Translations under genes and position numbers: made by a program | Shown here: piece by piece, positions 5,141 through 64,000 of the stretch | Layout of the letters: each line of letters starts with the position of its first letter | Numbering within the stretch: position 1 is the first letter of the stretch | Notes under the pieces: model-generated | Database searches by the model: none | Told to the model about the DNA's origin: nothing | The model's input: the letters and a program-made list of their open reading frames with translations, nothing else | Source: a virus | IMG/VR virus record: IMGVR_UViG_3300032294_002710 | Coordinates: 62,001 to 126,000 of that record | DNA length: 64,000 nt | Reading direction: 5' to 3' (one strand)

Positions 5141-6010
5141 TAGGTATCTATCTCCTCTATCACAGAGTATTGTTACTACTACACCTTCGGGATTGAATTC
5201 CTCTACAAATTTTTCAGCTGCTATTAAATTAGCGCCACTTGATATCCCAACAAATAATCCATTTTCAGATGCCAATCTTTTAGCTCTACATATTGAGTCA
5301 CTTGTTGATACTGTATAGATTTTATCTACCAATTTAAGATCAACTAAAAACTTAGATCCATCTCCTATGCCTTGTATACCATGTAATCCAGGACATCCAC
5401 CGGACATAACTGGTGATTCTGATGGTTCTACTGCTATTATTTTCACACCTTTTAAACTTTCTGAAAATCTTTTTTGACAACCCATTATTGTACCACCGGT
5501 GCCCGTTCCACTAATGAAAGCTTCTAATTTTTGTTCTGATGTTTGATTTATTATCTCAATTGATGTATTTAAATAGTGAGCTTCGATATTTAATTGATTA
5601 TCAAACTGGTTAGTATTAAACCAATTATTTTCTAATGAGAGTTTGTTTCTTAATTTTATAGCGCCATCAAAATCACCCGCATCTACTTCTATCAATTCAG
5701 CCCCATAAAATTTTAGTATTTGTTTTCTTTCTTGTGACATATTACTCGGCATTATAATTTTAATTTTATAACCTCTTTCGGATGCTAACCAAGCAAGTGA
5801 TATTCCGGCATTTCCTGATGTTGCCTCTACTATAGTGTCTCCTTTTTTAAGGAGATTATTTTTTTCAGCATGATTTATAATGTTAACCGCCATTCTGTCT
5901 TTTATTGAGCCACTTGGATTCATAAACTCAGCTTTGGCCCAAATTTTATCTGTTATTTTTAACATTGGTGTATTACCAACAAGGCAGGATAGTAAAGAGT
6001 TATTTGTCAT
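5129..6010 (-). CDS. cysK: Cysteine synthase (O-acetylserine sulfhydrylase)
   Basis: A full-length PLP fold-type II enzyme of 293 aa (family about 300). The PLP lysine is K37 in NPSGSIKDR. The substrate loop EATSGNAGIS, the phosphate-binding SGTGTGG and a C-terminal GISSGAN motif are all present. It should make cysteine from O-acetylserine and sulfide in the host cytoplasm. The start overlaps the end of the glycosyltransferase gene by 11 nt, so the two form a minus-strand operon. CysM or a cystathionine-beta-synthase-like activity cannot be excluded. Such a gene is unusual on a phage and may act as an auxiliary metabolic gene or supply a modification. Confidence 0.88.
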   Translation of the reverse strand: MTNNSLLSCLVGNTPMLKITDKIWAKAEFMNPSGSIKDRMAVNIINHAEKNNLLKKGDTIVEATSGNAGISLAWLASERGYKIKIIMPSNMSQERKQILKFYGAELIEVDAGDFDGAIKLRNKLSLENNWFNTNQFDNQLNIEAHYLNTSIEIINQTSEQKLEAFISGTGTGGTIMGCQKRFSESLKGVKIIAVEPSESPVMSGGCPGLHGIQGIGDGSKFLVDLKLVDKIYTVSTSDSICRAKRLASENGLFVGISSGANLIAAEKFVEEFNPEGVVVTILCDRGDRYLTCF

Positions 6011-12077: not shown

Positions 12078-12484
12078 TCTCTAAAAACAAAAACAAATCT
12101 TGATGTTCCTATTCCGAATGATTGTAAATATTGATTTCCGTAGGCTGTTAATAATTCACAATTAAATTCGGATTGAAATCTTTTTAATAAATCTTCACAA
12201 TCTTGATTAAATTCATACAATGTTGTATAGAAGTCATTTGGTCCAGATAGGTCGCAGTGTATTATTAAATTGACATCTTTAATGTTTTTAATATGCTTTC
12301 CTATATTTATCCTACTATGATAGTCTCTAACGTTATAAGATTTAATAAACGAGTATCTAATATCGTTTGAATCTATTGAGTTTTCAACCATATCCCATTT
12401 ATCAACAAGATCTTGAAATATATCTTTTATTTCTTCGATGTTTGGATTATTTGAGAAACTTTCAAATTTTGAAATAATATACAT
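12074..12484 (-). CDS. Hypothetical protein with aromatic leader, 136 aa
   Basis: A soluble alpha/beta protein without recognised domain. The N-terminus MYIISKFESFSNN fits the capsid-targeting-like leader family, and a TATATATA-rich element lies directly upstream on the minus strand (12487-12502). It may therefore be a virion-packaged protein expressed late. Confidence 0.62.
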   Translation of the reverse strand: MYIISKFESFSNNPNIEEIKDIFQDLVDKWDMVENSIDSNDIRYSFIKSYNVRDYHSRINIGKHIKNIKDVNLIIHCDLSGPNDFYTTLYEFNQDCEDLLKRFQSEFNCELLTAYGNQYLQSFGIGTSRFVFVFRD

Positions 12485-12486
12485 GA

Positions 12487-12502
12487 CATATATATAAAAT
12501 TA
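12487..12502 (-). promoter_or_regulatory. TATATATA late-like promoter element
   Basis: The AT-only element lies 3-18 nt before the minus-strand ATG at 12484. It is the same general element as before other leader-bearing genes. The promoter role is inferred from position. Confidence 0.3.
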
Positions 12503-12512
12503 AAAAGCAAAC

Positions 12513-14054
12513 GTGTTAGTAGATACTCAATATTTAATAAATCATAGAAAACTAGTTGTTAGTTATGTTGATAAGTCAGGTGATATTAAGTTAAAATATT
12601 TTGATTGGCAAACTCCTCTTAAATATGTAACTTGTGAGGATAACGATCCCCAGAGACATCCAGATTATAAATCTTGGGATGGAAAGCATGTTAAGCAGAT
12701 AGAGGTAAATCATCCAGATCGATATGCAGTTTATGAATTTCTTGATGCTCTTCCAGAAAAAGAGAAAGAGGAAATTTTTGAATTTAATCTTCCTAAGATA
12801 TTTTTTATAGATATCGAGACTGAGATAATTGATGGATTTCCAGAGGCTGCTGATATAAAAGATGCCGCTGGAAATGTTATTAAAGAAGGTGCCTCTACAC
12901 AAGTTTTATCTATATCTATTGTTTATGACGATAAAATAATTCTTTTGGGGTTGAAAGATATGCCTCAAGATATGCAGGATCGTATAATAAACAATAGTAA
13001 TAAATATTTTGAAAAGTCAAAAGTTGAATACAAATTCAAATATGTTAGATATGAAAGTGAATTTGATATGATGTATGACTTTTTTCATAAGATGGTTCCA
13101 AAAATGCCACTTATAACCGGTTGGAACTTCTTAAACTATGACTGGTTATACTTAGTAAATAGATCTAGAAAGATATCAAAATGGGTAAATGGAAAAGAGA
13201 TAAAAATAGACCCAGCCGTTTCATCTCCAACTAAAAGATTAAATAAAGTTTGGTCAACTGATTATGAAGTTCCAGCTCATAGAATGATATTCGACTACAT
13301 GCAACTGTATGAAATTTGTGACACATCTATTAAGGTTAAAGAAAGCTCATCATTGGATTTTGTTTCAAATAAGTTAGTTGGTGTGGATAAAATTAAATAT
13401 TCCGGCTCTCTCCAAAAACTTTATGAAGACGACTTTGAAACTTTTATGTATTATAACGCTGTTGACTCCGTTTTGGTGCAAAAGATACATGAAGCCAGAA
13501 ATTATATTTCTATTATTTTCGCTATTTCTGCCCTTGCTAGAATTCGTGTTGTAGATATTGTGTCTCAGATGAATAATGCTCTTGGTTCACTTGCTATCAC
13601 TGAAGGTGTGCTCAGAAATAGATTCCGAGATATGGAAAACATTATCTTATTTAAAGACGAAAATGCTGTTCGTGGTGGTGAATCAGGAATTGCTGGTGGT
13701 TGGGTAAAAGATCCAGTTGTTGGTATGAATAAGTGGTGTGTTATTTATGACTTTGCCTCACTTTATCCTACAACTCAACTTCAGTTCTTTATCGCACCAG
13801 AAACATTTGTTGGTGTTAAAACTGAACAAGAAGCTGACTACTGTTTCAATGGTAATCAGAGAATTAAAATTGATTTAGATAAACACGTTGTCTGTGTAAA
13901 TGGTGTTGTCTTCGAGAAGAGATATTCACCAACACTGAAGATGTTGGATGATGTCTACGCTGACCGTAAAAAGAATAAGAAAATCATGATGGCTAAAAAA
14001 GAAGAGTATAAAGCTGTTATGGATGAAATAAAAAAATTAGAAGCCGAATTATAA
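12513..14054 (+). CDS. Family B DNA polymerase, N-terminal half (split polymerase)
   Basis: 513 aa from a GTG. The order is that of T4 gp43: an N-terminal domain, exonuclease motif I (FFIDIETE near residue 98), Exo II (NFLNYD near 204), Exo III (YNAVD near 314) and polymerase motif A (YDFASLYP near 412). The protein then ends in a helical KK-x-E-rich tail near the fingers. Motif B (K-x3-N-S-x-Y-G) and motif C (D-T-D) are missing, against a usual length near 900. The following DNA encodes a different helicase gene, so the second half must be elsewhere. This recalls the split gene 43 of some Aeromonas T4-like phages. Confidence 0.88.
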   Translation: MLVDTQYLINHRKLVVSYVDKSGDIKLKYFDWQTPLKYVTCEDNDPQRHPDYKSWDGKHVKQIEVNHPDRYAVYEFLDALPEKEKEEIFEFNLPKIFFIDIETEIIDGFPEAADIKDAAGNVIKEGASTQVLSISIVYDDKIILLGLKDMPQDMQDRIINNSNKYFEKSKVEYKFKYVRYESEFDMMYDFFHKMVPKMPLITGWNFLNYDWLYLVNRSRKISKWVNGKEIKIDPAVSSPTKRLNKVWSTDYEVPAHRMIFDYMQLYEICDTSIKVKESSSLDFVSNKLVGVDKIKYSGSLQKLYEDDFETFMYYNAVDSVLVQKIHEARNYISIIFAISALARIRVVDIVSQMNNALGSLAITEGVLRNRFRDMENIILFKDENAVRGGESGIAGGWVKDPVVGMNKWCVIYDFASLYPTTQLQFFIAPETFVGVKTEQEADYCFNGNQRIKIDLDKHVVCVNGVVFEKRYSPTLKMLDDVYADRKKNKKIMMAKKEEYKAVMDEIKKLEAEL

Positions 14055-56044: not shown

Positions 56045-56509
56045 ATGAAAAATTATACAACAAAAAGTGGAATGCAACTGATGCAAGATGAACTACGCCA
56101 CTTAAGCACAGTTGAATATAAAAATGCTATTGAGATGTTACAAGAAGCTCGTGATAAGGGTGATCTTTCTGAGAATGCTGAATATGAAGCTGCTAAAGAA
56201 TATCACGCTAATCTCTTAAATAAAATTTCAGCACTAAAAGAGAAGATTAGAACTTCTGAAGTTATTGAAAGTGCACAACTAGCAACTAATGAAGTTAATA
56301 TGTTATCAACCGTGGAGATTAAAAATCATAAACTTAATGTTAATCAGACTTGGAGATTGGTATCAGAGAGCGAAATTGATACTAAGAATGGTAAAATATC
56401 GTTTAATTCACCTATTGGTATGGCATTAATAGGTCACAAAGTTGGAGAGGTTGTTGAAGTTAATGTACCATCTGGCGTTATGAAGTTAGAAATTTTAAGT
56501 ATTAAATAA
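56045..56509 (+). CDS. greA: GreA-family transcript cleavage factor
   Basis: 154 aa, close to the 158 of GreA. The N-terminal coiled coil has the acidic tip loop GDLSENAEY (catalytic Asp/Glu), and the C-terminal domain has the GreA-type SPIGMALIGHKVGEVVEV. It should enter the RNA polymerase secondary channel and stimulate cleavage of backtracked RNA. A phage GreA could rescue the host polymerase on the very AT-rich genome or change promoter choice. It overlaps the next gene (TAATG). Confidence 0.88.
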   Translation: MKNYTTKSGMQLMQDELRHLSTVEYKNAIEMLQEARDKGDLSENAEYEAAKEYHANLLNKISALKEKIRTSEVIESAQLATNEVNMLSTVEIKNHKLNVNQTWRLVSESEIDTKNGKISFNSPIGMALIGHKVGEVVEVNVPSGVMKLEILSIK

Positions 56510-56923: not shown

Positions 56924-57406
56924 ATGATAAGTAAATTTTCAAAATTAACAGAATCTAATGATTCTACGAAGTTTAAGGTTGGTCTTGATTTACACGGTGT
57001 TATAGATGCACTTCCAGATTTTTTCGCATTTTTGACTGACTCAATTGTTAAAAATGGTGGAGAAGTTCATATAATCACTGGTGGTTCTTGGACTAAAGAA
57101 CTTGAAGACCAAGTAAATTCAATGAATATTAAATGGACTCATAATTTTTCAGTCTATGACCATCTTATTGAGATAGGAACACCAACTTCTGGTGAGTATG
57201 TTTTTCCAGATGGAACTGTTCAGAAGAAATTTTTAGGAGATGCTTGGGATAAGGCAAAGTCTGATTATTGTAGAGAAAATAATATTAGTTTTCACATTGA
57301 TGATACTCTAATCTACAATAACTTTTTTACTACACCATTTTGTAGACTTTGGACACATAATAATAAACCAAAGTCTCCACATAAAGATGTGAGACATTTG
57401 GACTAA
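56924..57406 (+). CDS. HAD-like protein with leader, 160 aa
   Basis: The leader is MISKFSKLTESND with an LTE site; the HAD motif follows at once: KVGLDLHGVIDALPDF (D-x-x-x-V-x-D). A later HIITGGSW and HIDD segment complete a small HAD fold. Paralogous in fold to the 56509 gene but with a packaging leader, so it may be a virion-carried phosphatase or nucleotidase. Convergent with the 57403 gene (4-nt overlap). Confidence 0.7.
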   Translation: MISKFSKLTESNDSTKFKVGLDLHGVIDALPDFFAFLTDSIVKNGGEVHIITGGSWTKELEDQVNSMNIKWTHNFSVYDHLIEIGTPTSGEYVFPDGTVQKKFLGDAWDKAKSDYCRENNISFHIDDTLIYNNFFTTPFCRLWTHNNKPKSPHKDVRHLD

Positions 57407-58530
57407 TCTAGTTGTTCTAATATTATTACAATTTTATAACCCATATAGATTTTAAAGAATTTTAATGAGTCTTCATAGGAAGGATCCCCAATAGTACATA
57501 GTTTGAATTTACTATTTTTTTGAAATCTTTCATCTTGTGATATTGAGTATTCTGTTTCTAAAAATTTTTCAATTTTTTCAAAGTTTATATGACCGCCATC
57601 ATGATCATCTTCATCTTCATCAAAATTTGGAAGCATTGAATATTCTAAGATGTAGTATATTTTATCTTGTCTGAAAAAATCAGGTATATTTTTAAACATA
57701 AAATTTGAATAAAATTTATCAAATATTCTTGACTTTATACCAACTACATCATTAATACGAGTTGATATACTTACACTTAACTTTGAATTGAACATTTCTT
57801 TTGCAAGGTCAGTAAGATCTATAAAATAATCTTCAACCTCATCAATAGTATTAGAAGCATTTTTATCAATTATTTCATTGAACTTTACTTCTAAATCTTT
57901 TTTATTATCCTCATATTCTTTTCTTTTAGATTCGTATCTATCTTTTAGTTTTTTCTGTAAGTCTTTATCTATTTCTAAAACTCTCATGTAATTAAAAGCT
58001 TTGAAACCACTCATTTCTGGGTATTTTTTAATATACTCTTTTTTGAAAAACTCTATTAATTTATCTACTTGAGATTGTGAGATATTAATATAGCTATAAA
58101 CATCATTATCATTTAGTCCAGTCTCTGATGTTAGAACCTTATTGGTTTTCATATCTCTACCAATTAATCTTTTACTCGGTCCGGATCCATTTTTCTCAAC
58201 TTCTATTCTGGCTCTTGTTATATCATTATCCCAACCAGATTCTCGTATTGATGTTAGATTAACTTCGATGTATTCTGGATATTCACCACCAGCTGTTCCA
58301 GCTTGTGCATATGGGTCTTCAGATATCTTGTATATTAAGGTGCACTGTGATCCATTATCAAAGATTTTTGCCGCCATAACATTTTTATGTTTGTTATAGT
58401 TTTGATAAATCATATCTATATACTTTTTAGCGATTTTATCATTCTCTTTAACCGTTTTATAGTTAAGTAATTCTAATCCTTTAGATATAATACCTTCGTT
58501 AATAAATTCTTGATATTTTTGTAGTTTCAT
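57403..58530 (-). CDS. Hypothetical protein with T4-like CTS, 375 aa
   Basis: I place the start at ATG 58530, giving MKLQKYQEFINEG, the best single match in the window to the T4 internal-protein leader (K-T-Y-Q-E-F-I-A-E). The start at 58563 would add 11 unrelated residues. The body is soluble, mixed and unrecognised. It likely is an internal head protein. Confidence 0.72.
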   Translation of the reverse strand: MKLQKYQEFINEGIISKGLELLNYKTVKENDKIAKKYIDMIYQNYNKHKNVMAAKIFDNGSQCTLIYKISEDPYAQAGTAGGEYPEYIEVNLTSIRESGWDNDITRARIEVEKNGSGPSKRLIGRDMKTNKVLTSETGLNDNDVYSYINISQSQVDKLIEFFKKEYIKKYPEMSGFKAFNYMRVLEIDKDLQKKLKDRYESKRKEYEDNKKDLEVKFNEIIDKNASNTIDEVEDYFIDLTDLAKEMFNSKLSVSISTRINDVVGIKSRIFDKFYSNFMFKNIPDFFRQDKIYYILEYSMLPNFDEDEDDHDGGHINFEKIEKFLETEYSISQDERFQKNSKFKLCTIGDPSYEDSLKFFKIYMGYKIVIILEQLD

Positions 58531-58531
58531 T

Positions 58532-58888
58532 TTAGTGATTTCTTTTTGGCAGAGGCATATCACTTACTATTTTTACTTTAAAAGTAAATCCATCATCTGT
58601 TCCATAAACTGTGTCGGCGTCGTAATTACCACCAAATGTATATGGTTTTGGACCATTTGCCTTCATCATTTGTTCGTGTAGTTGTTGCCTTAACTTTTCA
58701 TCTTCTAACCTACACATTTCCTCATATGGAAGATCCCTTGTTGGATTAAATGTAGGTTCCTGATAAGTTTGTGGGTTATTTTTATAACCATACTTAGCAA
58801 GTAACATCTCAGCCTCATTTTGAGATATATCAGCTGGTTTAATATCTTCTTGTTGATCTTGTACTATTCTAACTTCTGGTCTATTCAT
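58532..58888 (-). CDS. Hypothetical protein, 118 aa
   Basis: A soluble acidic/Pro-Gln protein (MNRPEVRIVQDQQED). Unrecognised, no leader. It lies 1 nt from the leader gene at 57403 and is co-transcribed with it. Confidence 0.62.
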   Translation of the reverse strand: MNRPEVRIVQDQQEDIKPADISQNEAEMLLAKYGYKNNPQTYQEPTFNPTRDLPYEEMCRLEDEKLRQQLHEQMMKANGPKPYTFGGNYDADTVYGTDDGFTFKVKIVSDMPLPKRNH

Positions 58889-59447: not shown

Positions 59448-59900
59448 ATGAAACACTTAAAAAAGTTTGAAAACTTTTCTATAAATGAAGAAGAAGAAGC
59501 TCTATTTGGTTTAGTACAGACAAATAAAGAGGCTAATAGTAAAATATCTGAATATACTCAAGATATTTTGTCTGGTAAGTTTGAAAAAACTGAAGATCTT
59601 AAAAAATCTATGAAAAAATATGTTGATGCTAAGCCGGTACAAGGTCTTGGTTCATCAATGGGTCAATGGATGGGTTACATAAGTAATGTTAATGACCTTT
59701 TAAAGGCTCCTAAGAAACCAGAAGGACAATTAGAAGATGCTTTTGGTAAAATGAAGCCAGCTACTGAAGTAATTGAAGAAGAGATAGCAAGAATCGTTCT
59801 TAAAGACAGATTAGTTGCTAAGAATGATGGTAAGTGGAATGTTGAAAGTAAAGGTAGAAGCTTTGGTGCAACTCAACACACTTTTGGTGGTGGTGCGTAA
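59448..59900 (+). CDS. Hypothetical helical protein with leader, 150 aa
   Basis: MKHLKKFENFSINEEEEA: the leader with INE, its first 10 residues identical to the protein at 16519-17037, although the two bodies differ. The rest is helical (KISEYTQDILSGKFEKTEDL) with a Gly-rich end. It is followed by a strong terminator. Good internal-protein candidate. Confidence 0.68.
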   Translation: MKHLKKFENFSINEEEEALFGLVQTNKEANSKISEYTQDILSGKFEKTEDLKKSMKKYVDAKPVQGLGSSMGQWMGYISNVNDLLKAPKKPEGQLEDAFGKMKPATEVIEEEIARIVLKDRLVAKNDGKWNVESKGRSFGATQHTFGGGA

Positions 59901-60861: not shown

Positions 60862-60933
60862 TGCGGGGTAGAGCAGAGGTAGCTCGTCAGGCTCATAACC
60901 TGAAGGCCGGTGGTTCGATTCCACCCCCCGCTA
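60862..60933 (+). tRNA. tRNA-Met(CAT), initiator-like
   Basis: Cloverleaf with anticodon CAT in stem TCAGG/CCTGA and T-arm GGTGG-TTCGATT-CCACC. The first acceptor pair T1:T72 is not a Watson-Crick pair (GCGGGG/CCCCGC below it), and D-stem pair 11:24 is A:T, both initiator marks. Only two of the three G:C pairs at 29-31:39-41 are present. No CCA is encoded. Most likely an fMet-type tRNA. Confidence 0.8.
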
Positions 60934-61018
60934 CATGAAAAAGAAAATTTGTATTTTTATACAGAAAATAACTCTAAACAAGATTTGCTTAGGTTATTGT
61001 AAAAATTAATACTCACAC

Positions 61019-61093
61019 TGCGGGTGGGTGAAACGGAAAATCATTCCAGGCTCATAACCTGTGAGATACTTGGTTCGACTCCAGGACCCGCTA
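61019..61093 (+). tRNA. tRNA with CAT anticodon (elongator Met or Ile2)
   Basis: Anticodon CAT in a loop CTCATAA, acceptor GCGGGT/ACCCGC with unpaired T1:T72, D-stem GTGA/TCAT (T11:A24, elongator type) and T-arm CTTGG-TTCGACT-CCAGG. The phage encodes TilS at 63499, so this may be a tRNA-Ile2 that is converted to lysidine to read AUA. Elongator Met is the alternative. No CCA encoded. Confidence 0.75.
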
Positions 61094-61135
61094 CAAAAAA
61101 ATTAAAAAAATATTTGGAGATTTAAAAAATCTTCG

Positions 61136-61143
61136 TATATTTG
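61136..61143 (+). promoter_or_regulatory. TAnnTTTG promoter with -33 TTTG
   Basis: TATATTTG preceded by TTTG at 61113-61116 with a spacing of 19 nt, the best full match to the Bacteroidetes promoter here. It drives the short ORF at 61178. Confidence 0.75.
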
Positions 61144-61177
61144 TAAAACAAAACAGAACAATTTAAAAATAGAAATC

Positions 61178-61258
61178 ATGGCAACTTTTGAAACATATTA
61201 TTATGAAGCGTATGAGGAACACTCAGCGACTGGAGATACTATGTCTGTGAAAAGTTGA
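61178..61258 (+). CDS. Micro-ORF, 26 aa, in the tRNA array
   Basis: MATFETYYYEAYEEH... to a TGA at 61258, an acidic Tyr-rich peptide. A promoter, 34-nt leader and a terminator (61290) frame it as its own transcription unit. The function is unknown; the RNA itself could be the product. Confidence 0.45.
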   Translation: MATFETYYYEAYEEHSATGDTMSVKS

Positions 61259-61289
61259 TATGTAAGATATTAACTAAAAACACAAGTTA

Positions 61290-61323
61290 ACCCAGTCAAA
61301 ATCAAAATTGACTGGGTTTTTTG
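61290..61323 (+). terminator. Intrinsic terminator with CCCAGTCA stem
   Basis: ACCCAGTCA-containing stem with TGACTGGGTTTTTT after the 61178 micro-ORF. Same stem as at 59921. Confidence 0.85.
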
Positions 61324-61336
61324 TTTTAAAATATAT

Positions 61337-61430
61337 TGGGGTATAACGGTAGGGCATAGTAAGCGCCCGACAGAGTATATAAAACGCCGTATGGACTACC
61401 TGTGAGGAGGTTCGATTCCTTCTACTCCAA
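61337..61430 (+). ncRNA. Atypical tRNA-like RNA (94 nt)
   Basis: Acceptor TGGGGTA/TACTCCA plus discriminator A and a normal T-arm GGAGG-TTCGATT-CCTTC. Between them there is no D-arm; instead GGTAG (61348-61352 region) pairs with CTACC, enclosing a GGGC...GCCC hairpin and a 26-nt linker. The acceptor resembles that of tRNA-Gln, but no Gln anticodon is found. A putative GTA in the hairpin loop lacks U33. Class unknown. Confidence 0.5.
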
Positions 61431-61438
61431 CTAAATAT

Positions 61439-61510
61439 GGTCCCATCATCTAATGGTTAGGATACAAGACTTTCAATCTTGAAATGCGGGTTCGATCCCC
61501 GTTGGGACTA
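61439..61510 (+). tRNA. tRNA-Glu(TTC)
   Basis: Acceptor GGTCCCA/TGGGACT with a G1:T72 pair, D-stem ATC/GAT, anticodon stem CAAGA/TCTTG with loop CTTTCAA (TTC), T-loop TTCGATC. Discriminator A, no CCA. Confidence 0.88.
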
Positions 61511-61519
61511 CAAAAATAT

Positions 61520-61603
61520 GGGAGAGTAACCGGTAACTGGTAGCCGCGCGGACTGTAAATCCGCTCTCATTCGAGACTGGGGGTTCGAGTCCCTCCTCTC
61601 CCA
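61520..61603 (+). tRNA. tRNA-Tyr(GTA), class II
   Basis: Acceptor GGGAGAG/CTCTCCC, anticodon stem GCGGA/TCCGC with loop CTGTAAA (GTA), a long variable arm and T-arm GGGGG-TTCGAGT-CCCTC. 84 nt, discriminator A, no CCA. Confidence 0.9.
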
Positions 61604-61608
61604 CAAAT

Positions 61609-61682
61609 GCTCTTGTCGTCTAACGGTAGGACTCCTGTTTTTCAAACAGATGTAGATGCGGGTTCGATTCCCGTCAAGAGTA
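61609..61682 (+). tRNA. tRNA-Glu(TTC), second copy type
   Basis: Acceptor GCTCTTG/CAAGAGT, D-stem GTC/GAC, anticodon loop TTTTCAA (TTC) on a stem with one C:A mismatch, T-loop TTCGATT. Discriminator A, no CCA. A different body from the 61439 tRNA. Confidence 0.78.
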
Positions 61683-61690
61683 CTAAATAT

Positions 61691-61784
61691 GGGATGTGTT
61701 GTCACAAGGGGTCTGTAAAACCCCTCTCCGTTAACAAAATTGTGACTGGTTTGGAGTTTAGAGGTTCGATTCCTTCATATCCCA
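61691..61784 (+). ncRNA. Atypical tRNA-like RNA with Tyr-type anticodon hairpin
   Basis: Acceptor GGGATGT/ATATCCC and T-arm (TTCGATT) are tRNA-like. The anticodon hairpin is GGGGT-CTGTAAA-ACCCC, a perfect Tyr(GTA) type arm. But the D-arm is missing; GTCACAA at about 61701 pairs with TTGTGAC at about 61740, enclosing the anticodon hairpin. It could be a variant tRNA-Tyr or a decoy. Confidence 0.55.
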
Positions 61785-61792
61785 CTAAATAT

Positions 61793-61867
61793 GGTCCGTT
61801 CGTCTAGCCAGGTCTAGGACATCTCCCTTTCACGGAGAAGACACGGGTTCGAATCCCGTACGGACTA
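61793..61867 (+). tRNA. tRNA-Glu(TTC), third
   Basis: Acceptor GGTCCGT/ACGGACT, D-stem GTC/GAC, anticodon stem TCTCC/GGAGA with loop CTTTCAC (TTC), T-loop TTCGAAT. Discriminator A. Confidence 0.87.
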
Positions 61868-61873
61868 CAATAT

Positions 61874-61947
61874 GGCCCTGTCGTCTACGATGGCTAGGAC
61901 ATCACCCTCTCAAGGTGAAGAAGGCGGATCGACACCGCTCAGGGCTA
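61874..61947 (+). tRNA. tRNA-Glu(CTC)
   Basis: Acceptor GGCCCTG/CAGGGCT, D-stem GTC/GAC, anticodon stem TCACC/GGTGA with loop CTCTCAA (CTC). The T-loop reads ATCGACA in place of TTCGANT, so position 54 is A, which may weaken folding or modification. Confidence 0.78.
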
Positions 61948-61949
61948 CA

Positions 61950-62091
61950 AAAATATCAGGAGTACCTGTCGTAGAAAGTTAATTACTTTCCCTGATATTT
62001 ATACAACTCAATGATGTAAGTGATTTTGGCAGTACCGACAGGAGGGTGAATTTAATTAGATTCTTTGGGGTTCGATTCCCACCATTGAGTT
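61950..62091 (+). ncRNA. tRNA-like RNA with pseudoknot (about 140 nt)
   Basis: A 5' domain: AAATATCAGG (61951-61960) pairs perfectly with CCTGATATTT (61991-62000), enclosing the GAAAGT/ACTTTC hairpin. Inside it, CCTGTCG (61965-61971) is complementary to CGACAGG (62036-62042) in the 3' domain, forming a pseudoknot. The 3' domain has an acceptor-like AACTCAATG/CATTGAGTT and a T-loop GTTCGATT on a TGGG/CCCA stem. No anticodon is recognised. Confidence 0.5.
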
Positions 62092-62098
62092 ATTTTAT

Positions 62099-62184
62099 TG
62101 GAAGGTGGCCGAGTGGTTAATGGCGGCAGACTGTAAATCTGCTCTCTTCGGAGTACGGGGGTTCGAATCCCTCCCTTCCAACCA
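62099..62184 (+). tRNA. tRNA-Tyr(GTA), class II, CCA encoded
   Basis: Acceptor TGGAAGG/CCTTCCA, anticodon loop CTGTAAA (GTA), long variable arm, T-arm GGGGG-TTCGAAT-CCCTC. It is followed directly by discriminator A and CCA, unlike the other tRNAs here. A second tRNA-Tyr. Confidence 0.88.
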
Positions 62185-62223
62185 AGAAATTATAAAAAAT
62201 TTCCTAAAATAAGAAATTTTTTA

Positions 62224-62231
62224 TATATTTG
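62224..62231 (+). promoter_or_regulatory. TAnnTTTG promoter inside the tRNA array
   Basis: TATATTTG; about 60 nt before the class II tRNA-like RNA at 62292. A likely second start for the array. Confidence 0.6.
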
Positions 62232-62291
62232 TAAAGTAAATCAAATGTGGCTAAGTCCTATATGGCAAAAAGTTCATATTTTGATTTTTAT

Positions 62292-62378
62292 GGGAAAGTA
62301 CCGAAGTGGTCAAACGGGCCTCAGTCGTAACTGGGGTGGCCTTAGGGTCTTCAGCGGTTCGAATCCGACTCTTTCCCA
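62292..62378 (+). tRNA. Class II tRNA with unclear anticodon
   Basis: Acceptor GGGAAAG/CTTTCCC, D-stem CCG/CGG, variable arm GGCC-TTAG-GGTC. The anticodon loop is 8 nt (GTCGTAAC) between CCTCA and TGGGG, giving CGT, or GTA with C at position 33. The T-stem is imperfect (bulged A). Could be a degenerate Tyr-like tRNA or a frameshift-type tRNA. Confidence 0.5.
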
Positions 62379-62408
62379 CTAAAATATTTATTAGGAGAGA
62401 AAAACTTT

Positions 62409-62418
62409 TTAATATATA
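62409..62418 (+). promoter_or_regulatory. TTAATATATA late-like promoter element
   Basis: About 30 nt upstream of the micro-ORF at 62446. Confidence 0.4.
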
Positions 62419-62445
62419 TTTATATAACTTAAAATAAAGATAAAA

Positions 62446-62523
62446 ATGAAAGCAGTTAATAACATATCAATCATAGGGAACGGCGCGATAGCGGGCGGTG
62501 GGCCCATTATGCTGATTGGATAA
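62446..62523 (+). CDS. Micro-ORF, 25 aa, Gly-rich hydrophobic
   Basis: Starts MKAVNNISIIGNG and continues with GGGP; stop TAA at 62523. The codons are far more GC-rich (GGCGCGATAGCGGG) than the rest. The late-like element lies before it, and a terminator (62553) lies after. Perhaps a membrane peptide or a structured RNA. Confidence 0.45.
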   Translation: MKAVNNISIIGNGAIAGGGPIMLIG

Positions 62524-62552
62524 GTTTTAACTCTTTCATTAAAGATACGAAC

Positions 62553-62581
62553 CCAGTCAGTAAATTGACTGGGTTTTTTTA
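62553..62581 (+). terminator. Intrinsic terminator with CCCAGTCA stem
   Basis: CCCAGTCAGTAAATTGACTGGG then seven Ts, after the 62446 micro-ORF. Third use of the same stem. Confidence 0.85.
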
Positions 62582-62585
62582 TTAT

Positions 62586-62666
62586 CGGCAGGTACCGTTG
62601 GATGCTTATATCATCTATACACGTAGCGGGAAGTTGAAAACGTGGGTTCGAATCCCACCCTGCCGA
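62586..62666 (+). ncRNA. Atypical tRNA-like RNA with TAT loop (81 nt)
   Basis: Acceptor CGGCAGG/CCTGCCG, perfect T-arm GTGGG-TTCGAAT-CCCAC. No D-arm: CCGTT pairs with AGCGG, enclosing the hairpin GGATG-CTTATAT-CATCT whose loop would give anticodon TAT (Ile, AUA codon). Same layout as the RNAs at 61337 and 61691. Confidence 0.55.
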
Positions 62667-62667
62667 C

Positions 62668-62742
62668 AAACTCAAACTTGTGTTAACTCCTTGAGAGTGA
62701 AGTTGTGTACACAACAGGTTTATTCCCATAAGTCCCTGAGTT
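62668..62742 (+). other. tRNA-sized structured stretch without T-loop
   Basis: AACTCA pairs with TGAGTT at the ends; inside, AAACTTGTGT and ACACAACAGGTTT roughly pair, and the 14-nt palindrome GTTGTGTACACAAC lies at 62702-62715. No T-loop or anticodon is recognisable. It could be a decayed tRNA or a separate RNA. Confidence 0.3.
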
Positions 62743-62745
62743 ATT

Positions 62746-62819
62746 GCAGAAGTGGTGTTTAATGGTTAGCATGTGAGACTTCCACTCTCAAGGTGCCGGT
62801 TCGAATCCGGTCTTCTGCT
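62746..62819 (+). tRNA. tRNA-Gly(TCC)
   Basis: Acceptor GCAGAAG/CTTCTGC, anticodon stem TGAGA/TCTCA with loop CTTCCAC (TCC), T-arm GCCGG-TTCGAAT-CCGGT. Discriminator T. Confidence 0.88.
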
Positions 62820-62826
62820 CAGATAT

Positions 62827-62900
62827 GTCGATGACGCATAAATGGTGGTGCACCTGATTGCCAATCAGGAATAGAGCCGGTTCGATCCCGGTTATCGACT
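62827..62900 (+). tRNA. tRNA-Gly(GCC)
   Basis: Acceptor GTCGATG/TATCGAC, D-stem GCA/TGC, anticodon stem CCTGA/TCAGG with loop TTGCCAA (GCC), T-arm GCCGG-TTCGATC-CCGGT. Discriminator T. Confidence 0.88.
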
Positions 62901-62915
62901 CAGACTTTTCAATAT

Positions 62916-62953
62916 GCCGGAGGACTCCCTGTTAGTCCCAGGGTCCGGCTCCA
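62916..62953 (+). other. Compact GC-rich hairpin ending in CCA
   Basis: GCCGGA/TCCGGC closes a 38-nt element; inside, CCCTG/CAGGG with loop TTAGTCC (or alternatively GGACT/AGTCC) forms a second stem. It ends T-CCA, directly before tRNA-Ala. This looks like an acceptor minihelix plus one hairpin. Confidence 0.35.
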
Positions 62954-63027
62954 GGGGCAGCATGTACCAAGGCTGGCGAAGATTTCTGGCAGAAATCTTG
63001 TGATGGATTCAATTTCCATCTGCTCCA
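62954..63027 (+). tRNA. tRNA-Ala(GGC)
   Basis: Acceptor GGGGCAG/CTGCTCC with the Ala identity pair G3:T70. Anticodon stem GATTT/AAATC, loop CTGGCAG (GGC). Short D-arm CCA/TGG, T-arm ATGGA-TTCAATT-TCCAT. Discriminator A. Confidence 0.82.
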
Positions 63028-63036
63028 CAAAAATTA

Positions 63037-63111
63037 GGGGATGCATGTACTGAGGCTAAGCGAAAAGCACTTGCAATGCTTTTGATGTGATTTCGACTAT
63101 CACCATCTCCA
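63037..63111 (+). tRNA. tRNA-Ala(TGC)
   Basis: Acceptor GGGGATG/CATCTCC with G3:T70, anticodon stem AAGCA/TGCTT with loop CTTGCAA (TGC), T-arm GTGAT-TTCGACT-ATCAC. Discriminator A. Confidence 0.88.
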
Positions 63112-63139
63112 CGAGTTCGATAGAGAAACTCTCCACTTT

Positions 63140-63214
63140 ATGAATGATTTTGAAAATGTTTTACAAAGGAAGAAGAGTATTAGAAATCAAAAATATCTTG
63201 AAAGTCTTAAATAA
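63140..63214 (+). CDS. Micro-ORF, 24 aa
   Basis: MNDFENVLQRKK... to a TAA at 63214, a basic helical peptide. It follows the last tRNA by 28 nt and precedes a promoter. Short, so weakly supported. Confidence 0.35.
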   Translation: MNDFENVLQRKKSIRNQKYLESLK

Positions 63215-63219
63215 TTTCA

Positions 63220-63227
63220 TATATTTG
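63220..63227 (+). promoter_or_regulatory. TAnnTTTG promoter, tilS region
   Basis: TATATTTG 16-23 nt before a frame that has no standard start codon; it probably drives this frame and tilS. Confidence 0.6.
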
Positions 63228-63242
63228 TAAAAATTAAATCTT

Positions 63243-63506
63243 ATTGCCGCAGAAACAAATAGTAAATTACCTGGTCAATACTGGGAACAATTAAATAAAC
63301 ACGGATTACCTAACTATCTTTACTTAGGGGATGAATTAGTAATCGTTGACAGTATTGAGAAAAGAAAGAGAAAAAATGGCGCGAAAGTCGATCAGATATA
63401 TTATATTCTGAGTGATGGTAGAGTAAAGCACGCATCTTTTTTCAAAAAGATTGATATAAAAGTAATAAAAAGAGATTATCTATTAAATAGTATCTTAAAT
63501 GATTAA
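63243..63506 (+). CDS. Frame of about 87 aa without a standard start
   Basis: The frame runs to a TAA at 63506 and reads as a real protein (PGQYWEQLNKHGLPNY, YLGDELVIVDSIEKRKR, VDQIYYILSDGRVKHASFF). But upstream of it there is a stop and no ATG, GTG or TTG; an ATT at 63243 is the first possible start, 15 nt after the promoter. It overlaps the tilS start. Either a rare ATT start or a 5'-lost gene. Confidence 0.5.
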   Translation: MAAETNSKLPGQYWEQLNKHGLPNYLYLGDELVIVDSIEKRKRKNGAKVDQIYYILSDGRVKHASFFKKIDIKVIKRDYLLNSILND

Positions 63507-64000
63507 AGTCTTAGGTAAAATTCCTAAAGGTGAATTTGGACTTGCCTGTTCAGGTGGGGTTGATTCGATGGCTATTGCTAACTTTTTAGTTAATGGTGGT
63601 TACAATCCACATATTCTATACTTTAATCATAATACTGAACACGGAGATCTTGCCGAGAAGTTTGTAACTGAATATTGTCAGAGACATAATCTAAAACTCA
63701 CAATTGGTAGAACTGATCTTAAACCTCAATCAAATAAAGAAAAGATTTGGAGTGATTTGAGATATGAGTTTTTCTCAAAATTTGATTTTCCTGTTATTAC
63801 TTGCCATCATTTAGATGATTGTGTTGAGACTTACATTTTCTCTTGTCTTAGAGGATTTCAATCGGTTATTCCTTATTCTAAGGGTAATGTAATTCGCCCA
63901 TTCCTATTGAATGAAAAATCACAATTTTATAAGTGGTGTGAGAATAAAGGAGTGCCTTTTATTGAGGATGAATCAAATTCATGTGTAGATTATTCAAGAA
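63499..64000 (+). CDS. tilS: tRNA(Ile)-lysidine synthetase TilS (partial)
   Basis: The first 167 residues of TilS, cut by the window end. The N-type ATP pyrophosphatase loop ACSGGVDSMA is near 17-26. HHLDDCVET, an RGFQ segment and the signature F-x-x-N-E-K-x-Q-F, EDESNSCVDYSR follow as in TilS. It should replace C34 of tRNA-Ile(CAU) by lysidine so that it reads AUA. The gene overlaps the upstream frame by 8 nt. It lies right after the tRNA array that has two CAU-anticodon tRNAs. Confidence 0.85.
   Translation, partial: MIKVLGKIPKGEFGLACSGGVDSMAIANFLVNGGYNPHILYFNHNTEHGDLAEKFVTEYCQRHNLKLTIGRTDLKPQSNKEKIWSDLRYEFFSKFDFPVITCHHLDDCVETYIFSCLRGFQSVIPYSKGNVIRPFLLNEKSQFYKWCENKGVPFIEDESNSCVDYSR

What the first reader, a model, noticed from the sequence alone, without database searches (positions are those of the whole stretch)
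61019..64000. Phage TilS paired with CAU-anticodon tRNAs
TilS is essential for AUA decoding and rarely phage-borne. It lies just after an array that holds two tRNAs with anticodon CAT, one with elongator-type D-stem. The genome uses AUA heavily. The phage may bring its own AUA-decoding system, perhaps against host tRNA-Ile2 depletion.
Basis: partly seen in the sequence, partly recalled or inferred. Interest (0 to 1): 0.72.

Follow-up and report, generated by a model that had tools for sequence, protein, structure and literature searches.

The report
Phage tRNA operons with leader-peptide attenuators

Summary
TilS is real: 195 aa, equivalog score above cut-off, TilS fold. It is a conserved catalytic-domain-only form, while all 80 Bacteroidota TilS checked have frames of at least 323 aa. 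Phage TilS is not rare and is published. The two CAU tRNAs named are initiator-class, not tRNA-Ile2, and no Ile2 was found in this 135-kb fragment. Related huge phages do encode Ile2 and tRNA-Ile(UAU) genes. AUA use (39.7% of Ile codons) is what AT bias predicts (40.5%).

The larger result lies inside the given coordinates. Each tRNA sub-array is preceded by a short ORF and an intrinsic terminator. The leader codons match the tRNAs downstream: YYYEAYEE before Glu/Tyr, ISIIGNGAIAGGG before Ile/Gly/Ala, QQQQQQQ before Gln, SSRSRSS before Arg/Ser. A segment just after these codons pairs with the terminator's 5' arm, as an antiterminator would. This holds for 37 units in about ten phage genomes. 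The true pairing is the best of 362,880 permutations, and a held-out phage gives 1 in 5,040. This is the architecture of trp/his/pheST attenuation, applied to tRNA genes. I found no published precedent in the library available. Regulation itself is inferred, not measured.

The parts
61113..61143 (+). Bacteroidetes-type promoter-like motif (TTG..TAnnTTTG) before leader 1
   Evidence: motif match; sequence only, function inferred
61178..61258 (+). leader peptide 1, MATFETYYYEAYEEHSATGDTMSVKS; Tyr/Glu control codons
   Evidence: conserved in L007 (MTTVTTYYYEAYEEHSATGDTMSVKS), L008, L087, L088, L288
61227..61234 (+). antiterminator segment of leader 1 (CGACTGGA), pairs with CCAGTC of the terminator 5' arm
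   Evidence: duplex z -1.5; pairing 0.57 against 0.30 in shuffles; fold z -4.3, 0 of 200 shuffles
61289..61318 (+). intrinsic terminator 1 (attenuator)
   Evidence: -16.3 kcal/mol, z -4.2, followed by T-run
61439..62184 (+). tRNA sub-array 1: Glu, Tyr, Glu, Glu, Glu, Tyr (plus tRNA-like elements ARAGORN does not call)
   Evidence: Rfam
62446..62523 (+). leader peptide 2, MKAVNNISIIGNGAIAGGGPIMLIG; Ile(AUA)/Gly/Ala control codons
   Evidence: homologous leaders in L007, L008, L087, L088, L288, L290
62509..62520 (+). antiterminator segment of leader 2 (ATGCTGATTGGA)
   Evidence: z -2.3, p 0.045; 0.67 against 0.24; z -1.9
62549..62576 (+). intrinsic terminator 2 (attenuator)
   Evidence: -17.1 kcal/mol, z -6.4
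62584..62668 (+). aberrant tRNA-like element with anticodon hairpin GATG-CTTATAT-CATC (UAU = Ile), at the position of tRNA-Ile(UAU) in relatives
   Evidence: not called by ARAGORN
62746..63112 (+). tRNA sub-array 2: Gly(UCC), Gly(GCC), Ala(UGC), and an uncalled Ala(GGC)-like element at about 62963-63030
   Evidence: direct reading of sequence for the GGC element
60862..60934 (+). initiator-class tRNA-fMet(CAU), outside any leader unit
61019..61094 (+). CAU tRNA with U1:U72 and initiator-like anticodon stem; not Ile2
63499..64000 (+). tilS, N-terminal-domain-only lysidine synthetase (195 aa, continues to record 126086)

Best explanation
This stretch is a tRNA-supply island of a Mahaphage-like huge phage. 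Its tRNA operons are controlled by ribosome-mediated transcription attenuation, and a minimal phage TilS sits beside them. In each unit, RNA polymerase first transcribes a 15-38-residue leader ORF whose control codons are those decoded by the tRNAs that follow, then an intrinsic terminator, then the tRNAs. If the matching charged tRNAs are plentiful, the ribosome runs through the leader, the segment behind the control codons is covered or passed, the terminator forms, and the tRNAs are not made. If they are scarce (codon mismatch with the host, or host tRNA cleavage), the ribosome stalls on the control codons, that segment pairs with the terminator's 5' arm, and the tRNA operon is transcribed until supply recovers. 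The initiator tRNA has no such leader, as expected, because elongating ribosomes cannot sense it. TilS most likely lysidinylates a phage or host tRNA-Ile2(CAU) for AUA decoding, alongside tRNA-Ile(UAU) genes in the AUA-sensing operon. Shown here: the architecture, the codon match, the complementarity, its recurrence in other phages, and the TilS family and fold. Inferred: transcription and translation of the leaders, stalling-dependent antitermination, the depletion trigger, and TilS activity.
For: The codon match was predicted from three units (note) before the other clusters were read. The remaining clusters then gave QQQQQQQ before Gln tRNAs, SSRSRSS before Arg/Ser, KHKHF..KWF before Phe/His/Lys(/Trp), and DQDQPD before Pro/Asp. 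More distant phages: GCDWQQE before Gly/Trp/Cys/Gln/Glu/Asp, and CWPPGC before Trp/Pro/Cys. Permutation tests: best of 362,880 over nine operon types, 1 of 5,040 in LR745206 and 1 of 720 in LR756502; a held-out 476-kb phage gave 1 of 5,040. Codon level: 264 of 294 control codons are readable by the downstream tRNAs against 233 expected, z 6.1. AUA makes up 21 of 32 Ile codons in leaders of Ile/Gly/Ala operons and 0 of 11 in leaders of operons with tRNA-Ile(GAU). Antiterminator: the leader pairs with the terminator arm better than shuffles (mean z -2.85; 23 of 32 units p<=0.05), and its co-transcriptional pairing probability is 0.73 against 0.28 shuffled, above the shuffle mean in 32 of 32 units. 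Homologous leaders L292 and L298 show coordinated change (GGACGGGATT with AATCCCGTC; GGACAGGATT with AATCCTGTTC). TilS.
Against: No expression or ribosome data exist. At equilibrium most full-length leaders favour the terminator even with the ribosome stalled, so switching would have to be kinetic. The complementarity alone is not significant for several units (9 of 32 have p>0.05, window leader 1 among them). In some leaders the antiterminator segment ends 20-30 nt before the stop codon, so a ribosome parked at the stop would not fully cover it. Transcription-translation coupling in Bacteroidetes is not established here. Three other tRNA-rich huge phages (LR745208, LR756511, G100) lack leaders by the same rule. 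Homologous units are not independent. In the window, two sub-array openings contain tRNA-like elements that cannot be typed with confidence.
Confidence: 0.83

Rival explanations
1. One reading: TilS and the two adjacent CAU tRNAs form a dedicated AUA-decoding pair.
For: TilS and CAU tRNAs are neighbours. In L009/L010 an Ile2-class CAU tRNA lies about 70 bp after tilS. A TilS without C-terminal domains may not read the acceptor stem at all, which would relax its substrate choice.
Against: Both window tRNAs are initiator-class with U1:U72 and G4-C69/G5-C68; 23 of 25 and 21 of 25 Bacteroidota Ile2 references have C4-G69 and C5-G68. tilS has its own promoter-like motif (63198) and is not in the tRNA operon.
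Confidence: 0.06
2. The hairpins are ordinary terminators or RNA-processing boundaries and the short ORFs are incidental or encode unrelated peptides.
For: tRNA arrays often have terminators and promoters between them; most leaders thermodynamically favour the terminator.
Against: The leader-to-tRNA match is the best of 362,880 permutations and was predicted before the other clusters were read. It recurs in a held-out genome and at codon level. Leader-terminator complementarity exceeds the shuffle mean in every unit.
Confidence: 0.07
3. The match is regulatory but works differently: the leader titrates or senses uncharged tRNA directly, as a T-box does, or the stalled leader ribosome protects or recruits factors, without an antiterminator.
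For: Codon content matches without proof of translation; antiterminators of a few units are weak.
Against: Rfam finds no T-box match in the window, even at permissive threshold over the array. Complementarity is always placed behind the control codons. Codon runs in an ORF are expected only if it is translated.
Confidence: 0.06

Closest known systems
Ribosome-mediated leader-peptide attenuators (E. coli trp, his, leu, thr, ilv; pheM-pheST for an aminoacyl-tRNA synthetase operon); from general knowledge
   Same: Short ORF with runs of control codons, segment behind them that can pair with the terminator 5' arm, intrinsic terminator before the structural genes.
   Different: Structural genes are tRNA genes, not biosynthetic or synthetase genes. 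Carried by phages, with many parallel units per genome, each with codons for its own tRNA set. Response inferred only.
T-box riboswitches
   Same: Couple tRNA status to terminator/antiterminator choice.
   Different: No T-box family match; control sits in an ORF.
Bacterial TilS, type I (>400 aa) and type II (>300 aa) (PMC12514573)
   Same: PP-loop SGGxDS, HHLDDxxET and RNxIR motifs; fold matches 2e21/1ni5.
   Different: 195-205 aa; ends after the catalytic domain and lacks CTD1 and CTD2. All 80 Bacteroidota TilS checked have frames of 323 aa or more.
Phage TilS of MIJ3/PA5oct (PMC6892783) and RsoM2USA (PMC8504454)
   Same: Phage-borne TilS near tRNA arrays with several CAU tRNAs; MIJ3's is also short.
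   Different: The MIJ3 passages read did not note the missing domains or type the CAU tRNAs. RsoM2USA's is 349 aa.
Mahaphages LR756502 and LR745206 (Al-Shayeb et al. 2020, PMC7162821)
   Same: Same TilS (82 and 79% identity), similar array order, same attenuator units.
   Different: The main-text passages read report many tRNAs and tRNA-modification genes; no leader peptides or attenuation are mentioned there.

Membership tests
Leader-peptide (ribosome-mediated) attenuator | Short leader ORF with codons for the limiting aminoacyl-tRNA | tested here: met
Leader-peptide (ribosome-mediated) attenuator | Intrinsic terminator between leader and structural genes | tested here: met
Leader-peptide (ribosome-mediated) attenuator | Antiterminator segment behind the control codons, complementary to the terminator 5' arm | tested here: met
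   23 of 32 units significant singly, 32 of 32 above shuffle mean; equilibrium folding favours the terminator in most
Leader-peptide (ribosome-mediated) attenuator | Read-through rises when the cognate charged tRNA is scarce | not testable with these tools
   needs a reporter or infection transcriptome
T-box riboswitch | Match to a T-box family | tested here: not met
   no T-box match in Rfam scans of the window
TilS | Equivalog N-terminal domain above curated cut-off | tested here: met
   TIGR02432 112.3 bits, cut-off 93.6
TilS | PP-loop SGGxDS, HHxDDxxET and RNxIR motifs and fold | tested here: met
   invariant in 31 phage sequences; TM 0.81 to 2e21
TilS | C-terminal tRNA-binding domain(s) CTD1/CTD2 (types I and II) | tested here: not met
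   ORF ends at the catalytic domain; so do the phage relatives examined, 195-205 aa
TilS | Lysidine formation on tRNA-Ile2 | not testable with these tools
   biochemical assay needed
tRNA-Ile2(CAU) (for 60862 and 61019) | C4-G69/C5-G68 and A31-U39, normal 1:72 pair | tested here: not met
   G4-C69, G5-C68, G31-C39, U1:U72; class scores favour fMet

The most novel reading that the evidence does not exclude
The units form a phage-encoded bank of codon-specific sensors of tRNA shortage. Each operon is held off by its own attenuator and switches on replacement tRNAs only when host tRNAs of that set run out, for example when a host anticodon nuclease cuts them. This would be the first known attenuation of tRNA genes and a demand-driven counter to tRNA-targeting defence, with an AUA/Ile branch backed by a catalytic-domain-only TilS.
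Probability: 0.5. Interest if true: 0.92.

Novelty: new variant of a known kind. Interest (0 to 1): 0.85.

Why it matters
Phage tRNAs are usually explained by codon-usage compensation or replacement of cleaved tRNAs, with little known about when they are made. A leader that spells out the codons its operon serves makes that testable: it says what shortage the phage expects and predicts which stress turns on which tRNA set. It would also extend classical attenuation from amino-acid and synthetase operons to tRNA genes, and the codon runs give a sequence signature for finding such switches. The short TilS offers a natural test of what the catalytic domain can do without tRNA-binding domains.

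Tried and rejected
TilS with tRNAs 60862/61019 as the AUA pair: rejected on tRNA class. Special AUA preference: rejected, equals the AT-bias expectation. Ile(UAU) lost in the window: revised after finding the UAU hairpin in the aberrant element. Search of genome contigs with the phage TilS found no near cellular relative. The first CAU pattern search used too wide a gap and gave only chance hits, repeated correctly. Thg1-like gene as something rare: rejected, 127 phage records have it. Attenuators as universal in huge phages: rejected, absent by the same rule in LR745208, LR756511 and G100. Equilibrium folding alone as proof of switching: rejected, it favours the terminator in most units, so the co-transcriptional test was used.
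Full report
What was checked first. The window is record positions 62001-126000 of a 134,852-bp virus contig. A TilS ORF starts at window 63499 and is complete in the record (195 aa). It scores 112.3 bits against TIGR02432 with a cut-off of 93.6. A profile of 31 phage relatives matches only TilS chains in the PDB (A. aeolicus, G. kaustophilus, E. coli). The AlphaFold model of the 86%-identical L007 protein (pLDDT 88, pTM 0.84) has TilS 2e21 as its best structural match, TM 0.81. The PP-loop, HHLDDxxET and RNxIR motifs are invariant across the 31 phage sequences.

Where it comes from. The nearest named phages are the 642- and 634-kb genomes LR756502 and LR745206 (82% and 79% TilS identity). Their lengths match two of the complete genomes of Al-Shayeb et al. 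2020, whose Mahaphage clade has predicted Bacteroidetes hosts (PMC7162821). The window is therefore most likely part of a contig that holds about a fifth of a Mahaphage-like genome (inference). TilS is common in phages: 244 IMG/VR contigs passed confirmation. It is published for MIJ3/PA5oct (PMC6892783) and RsoM2USA (PMC8504454).

A short TilS. Published TilS proteins are type I (>400 aa, two C-terminal domains) or type II (>300 aa, one) (PMC12514573). The best TilS match in each of 80 Bacteroidota genomes lies in an open frame of at least 323 aa. The phage proteins examined end at about 195-205 aa, just after the catalytic domain, with a conserved VNPG..KK end. This is a stable phage form, not decay. 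What replaces the acceptor-stem contacts of the missing domains is unknown.

The CAU tRNAs. CAU tRNAs from Bacteroidota genomes fall into three clear classes (10 fMet, 17 elongator Met, 25 Ile2). A position-weight classifier assigned 51 of 52 correctly with each left out in turn. Window tRNA 60862 is initiator class (75.9 against -1.0 for Ile2). The third, at record 133723, is not Ile2 either (33.6 against -9.2). The scan of the whole record found no other tRNA cluster. Relatives with the same TilS do encode Ile2: LR756502 (68.3), LR745206 (51.2 and 33.9, the latter inside the array before tilS), L009 (59.4, about 70 bp after tilS), L011/L012 (47.1), L056's contig (80.8), MIJ3 (57.8), and L052's contig less clearly (39.1 against 31.6 for elongator Met). 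tRNA-Ile(UAU) is in the arrays of LR756502, LR745206, L007 and L008. AUA is 39.7% of Ile codons, against 40.5% expected from four-fold third-base composition.

The unexpected part. Upstream of the window's tRNA sub-arrays lie a Bacteroidetes-like promoter motif, a short ORF and an intrinsic terminator. Leader 1 (61178-61258) reads MATFETYYYEAYEEHSATGDTMSVKS and precedes Glu and Tyr tRNAs. Leader 2 (62446-62523) reads MKAVNNISIIGNGAIAGGGPIMLIG and precedes Gly, Ala and a UAU element. Leader 3 (L002:13516) reads MRTMNLNITNLNLTMVVNNTLCIRTAGSGCAKFGFIS and precedes Leu, Arg, Asn, Thr, Cys, Val, Ile and Met tRNAs. The hypothesis of attenuation was written down with its test, namely the other tRNA clusters of the two complete Mahaphages, before those were read for leaders.

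The test. The other clusters gave MTTSFQQQQQQQINRTD and MTTTQQIQQQQINQTD before Gln tRNAs; MKTTIKNTSSRSRSSKSGEVRLYS and MKTINNTSKSSSRSSSMSEIRLYS before Arg/Ser; MRTINKHKHFSKLNKWFSNHRFEAKAFC and MTTNSTHKNFSKSHKWFSNQSFGTESVLSLN before Phe/His/Lys and Trp; and DQDQPD / PQPQDQDP stretches before Pro/Asp. More distant TilS phages gave GFNGCDWQQEPPC before Gly/Trp/Cys/Gln/Glu/Asp (L009, L012) and CWPPGC before Trp/Pro/Cys (L056). With one leader per operon chosen by position and length only, the true pairing of leaders and tRNA sets was the best of all 362,880 permutations over nine types, 1 of 5,040 within LR745206 and 1 of 720 within LR756502. A held-out 476-kb phage, five of whose seven units were read only afterwards, gave 1 of 5,040.

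Codons, not only amino acids. 264 of 294 control codons can be read by the downstream anticodons under simple wobble rules, against 233 expected from phage codon use (z 6.1). AUA is 21 of 32 Ile codons in leaders of Ile/Gly/Ala operons but 0 of 11 in leaders of operons carrying tRNA-Ile(GAU) (Fisher p 2e-4; homologous leaders are not independent). Leader 3 uses CUA, UUG, CUC and UUA before the four Leu anticodon types UAG, CAA, AAG and UAA.

The switch. In every unit a segment behind the control codons is complementary to the terminator's 5' arm (mean z -2.85, 23 of 32 singly significant). In leader 3 it is a 10-of-10 match (GGTTCGGGTT with AACCCGAACC). In transcripts cut before the terminator's 3' arm, with the ribosome placed on the control codons, the arm pairs with the leader with probability 0.73 against 0.28 in shuffles (32 of 32 units above the shuffle mean). 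For window leader 1 this RNA folds at -19.9 kcal/mol, z -4.3, none of 200 shuffles as good. With the whole terminator present, the terminator wins in most units, so control would depend on timing. Terminator and leader segment change together between homologous units (L292/L298).

What is shown and what is not. Architecture, codon match, complementarity, recurrence and prediction are computed results. Translation of the leaders, stalling-dependent read-through, and the condition that causes stalling are inferred. Three further tRNA-rich huge phages lack the units by the same rule, so the system is widespread in one group but not universal. Searches of the open-access library found no description of attenuation of phage or bacterial tRNA operons; subscription papers and preprints were not searched.

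Verdict. The stronger finding is the set of leader-peptide attenuators that appear to control the tRNA arrays in the same stretch.

Noticed in passing
window 62584-62668; L002:14336-14419; L087:8677-8765; L087:19425-19512; L288:~5470-5555: Homologous tRNA-like elements without a normal D-arm, with seven-base anticodon loops reading UAU in the Ile/Gly/Ala operon and GAU in the Leu/Asn operon: a non-canonical tRNA-Ile form or an anticodon decoy.
   Followed up: partly
window 61337-61432, 61690-61784, 61998-62092, 62293-62379, 62963-63030: Further tRNA-like elements missed by ARAGORN; 61690-61784 and 62292-62377 show weak tRNA-Sec family scores and GUA-like loops with long variable arms.
   Followed up: partly
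L002:11253-12074 (record 129253-130074): Thg1-like reverse polymerase between tilS and the second tRNA array; several phage tRNAs have U1:U72 or G1.U72 ends, so 5'-end repair is conceivable. Thg1 is common in phages (127 records).
   Followed up: partly
window 57403-58563 (-), 59448-59900; L002:8076-10725 (-), 12448-12822: Many ORFs share an N-terminus like MKYLKxFExFxxxxE, resembling the T4 capsid-targeting sequence of packaged internal proteins.
   Followed up: no
window ~63240-63508: About 86 codons open without a standard start codon, ending in an ATGA overlap with the tilS start: a likely coupled upstream gene behind the promoter-like motif at 63198.
   Followed up: no
window 60862-60934; L007:7973; L088:4866; L286:939: Phage-encoded initiator-class tRNA-fMet genes of Bacteroidota type, outside the leader-controlled operons.
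   Followed up: partly
LR745208, LR756511 and G100 (L316-L331): Other tRNA-rich huge phages with Thg1 but without leader/terminator units by the same rule.
   Followed up: partly
window 56045-56509: Phage GreA homologue (NF001263, 159 bits).
   Followed up: no
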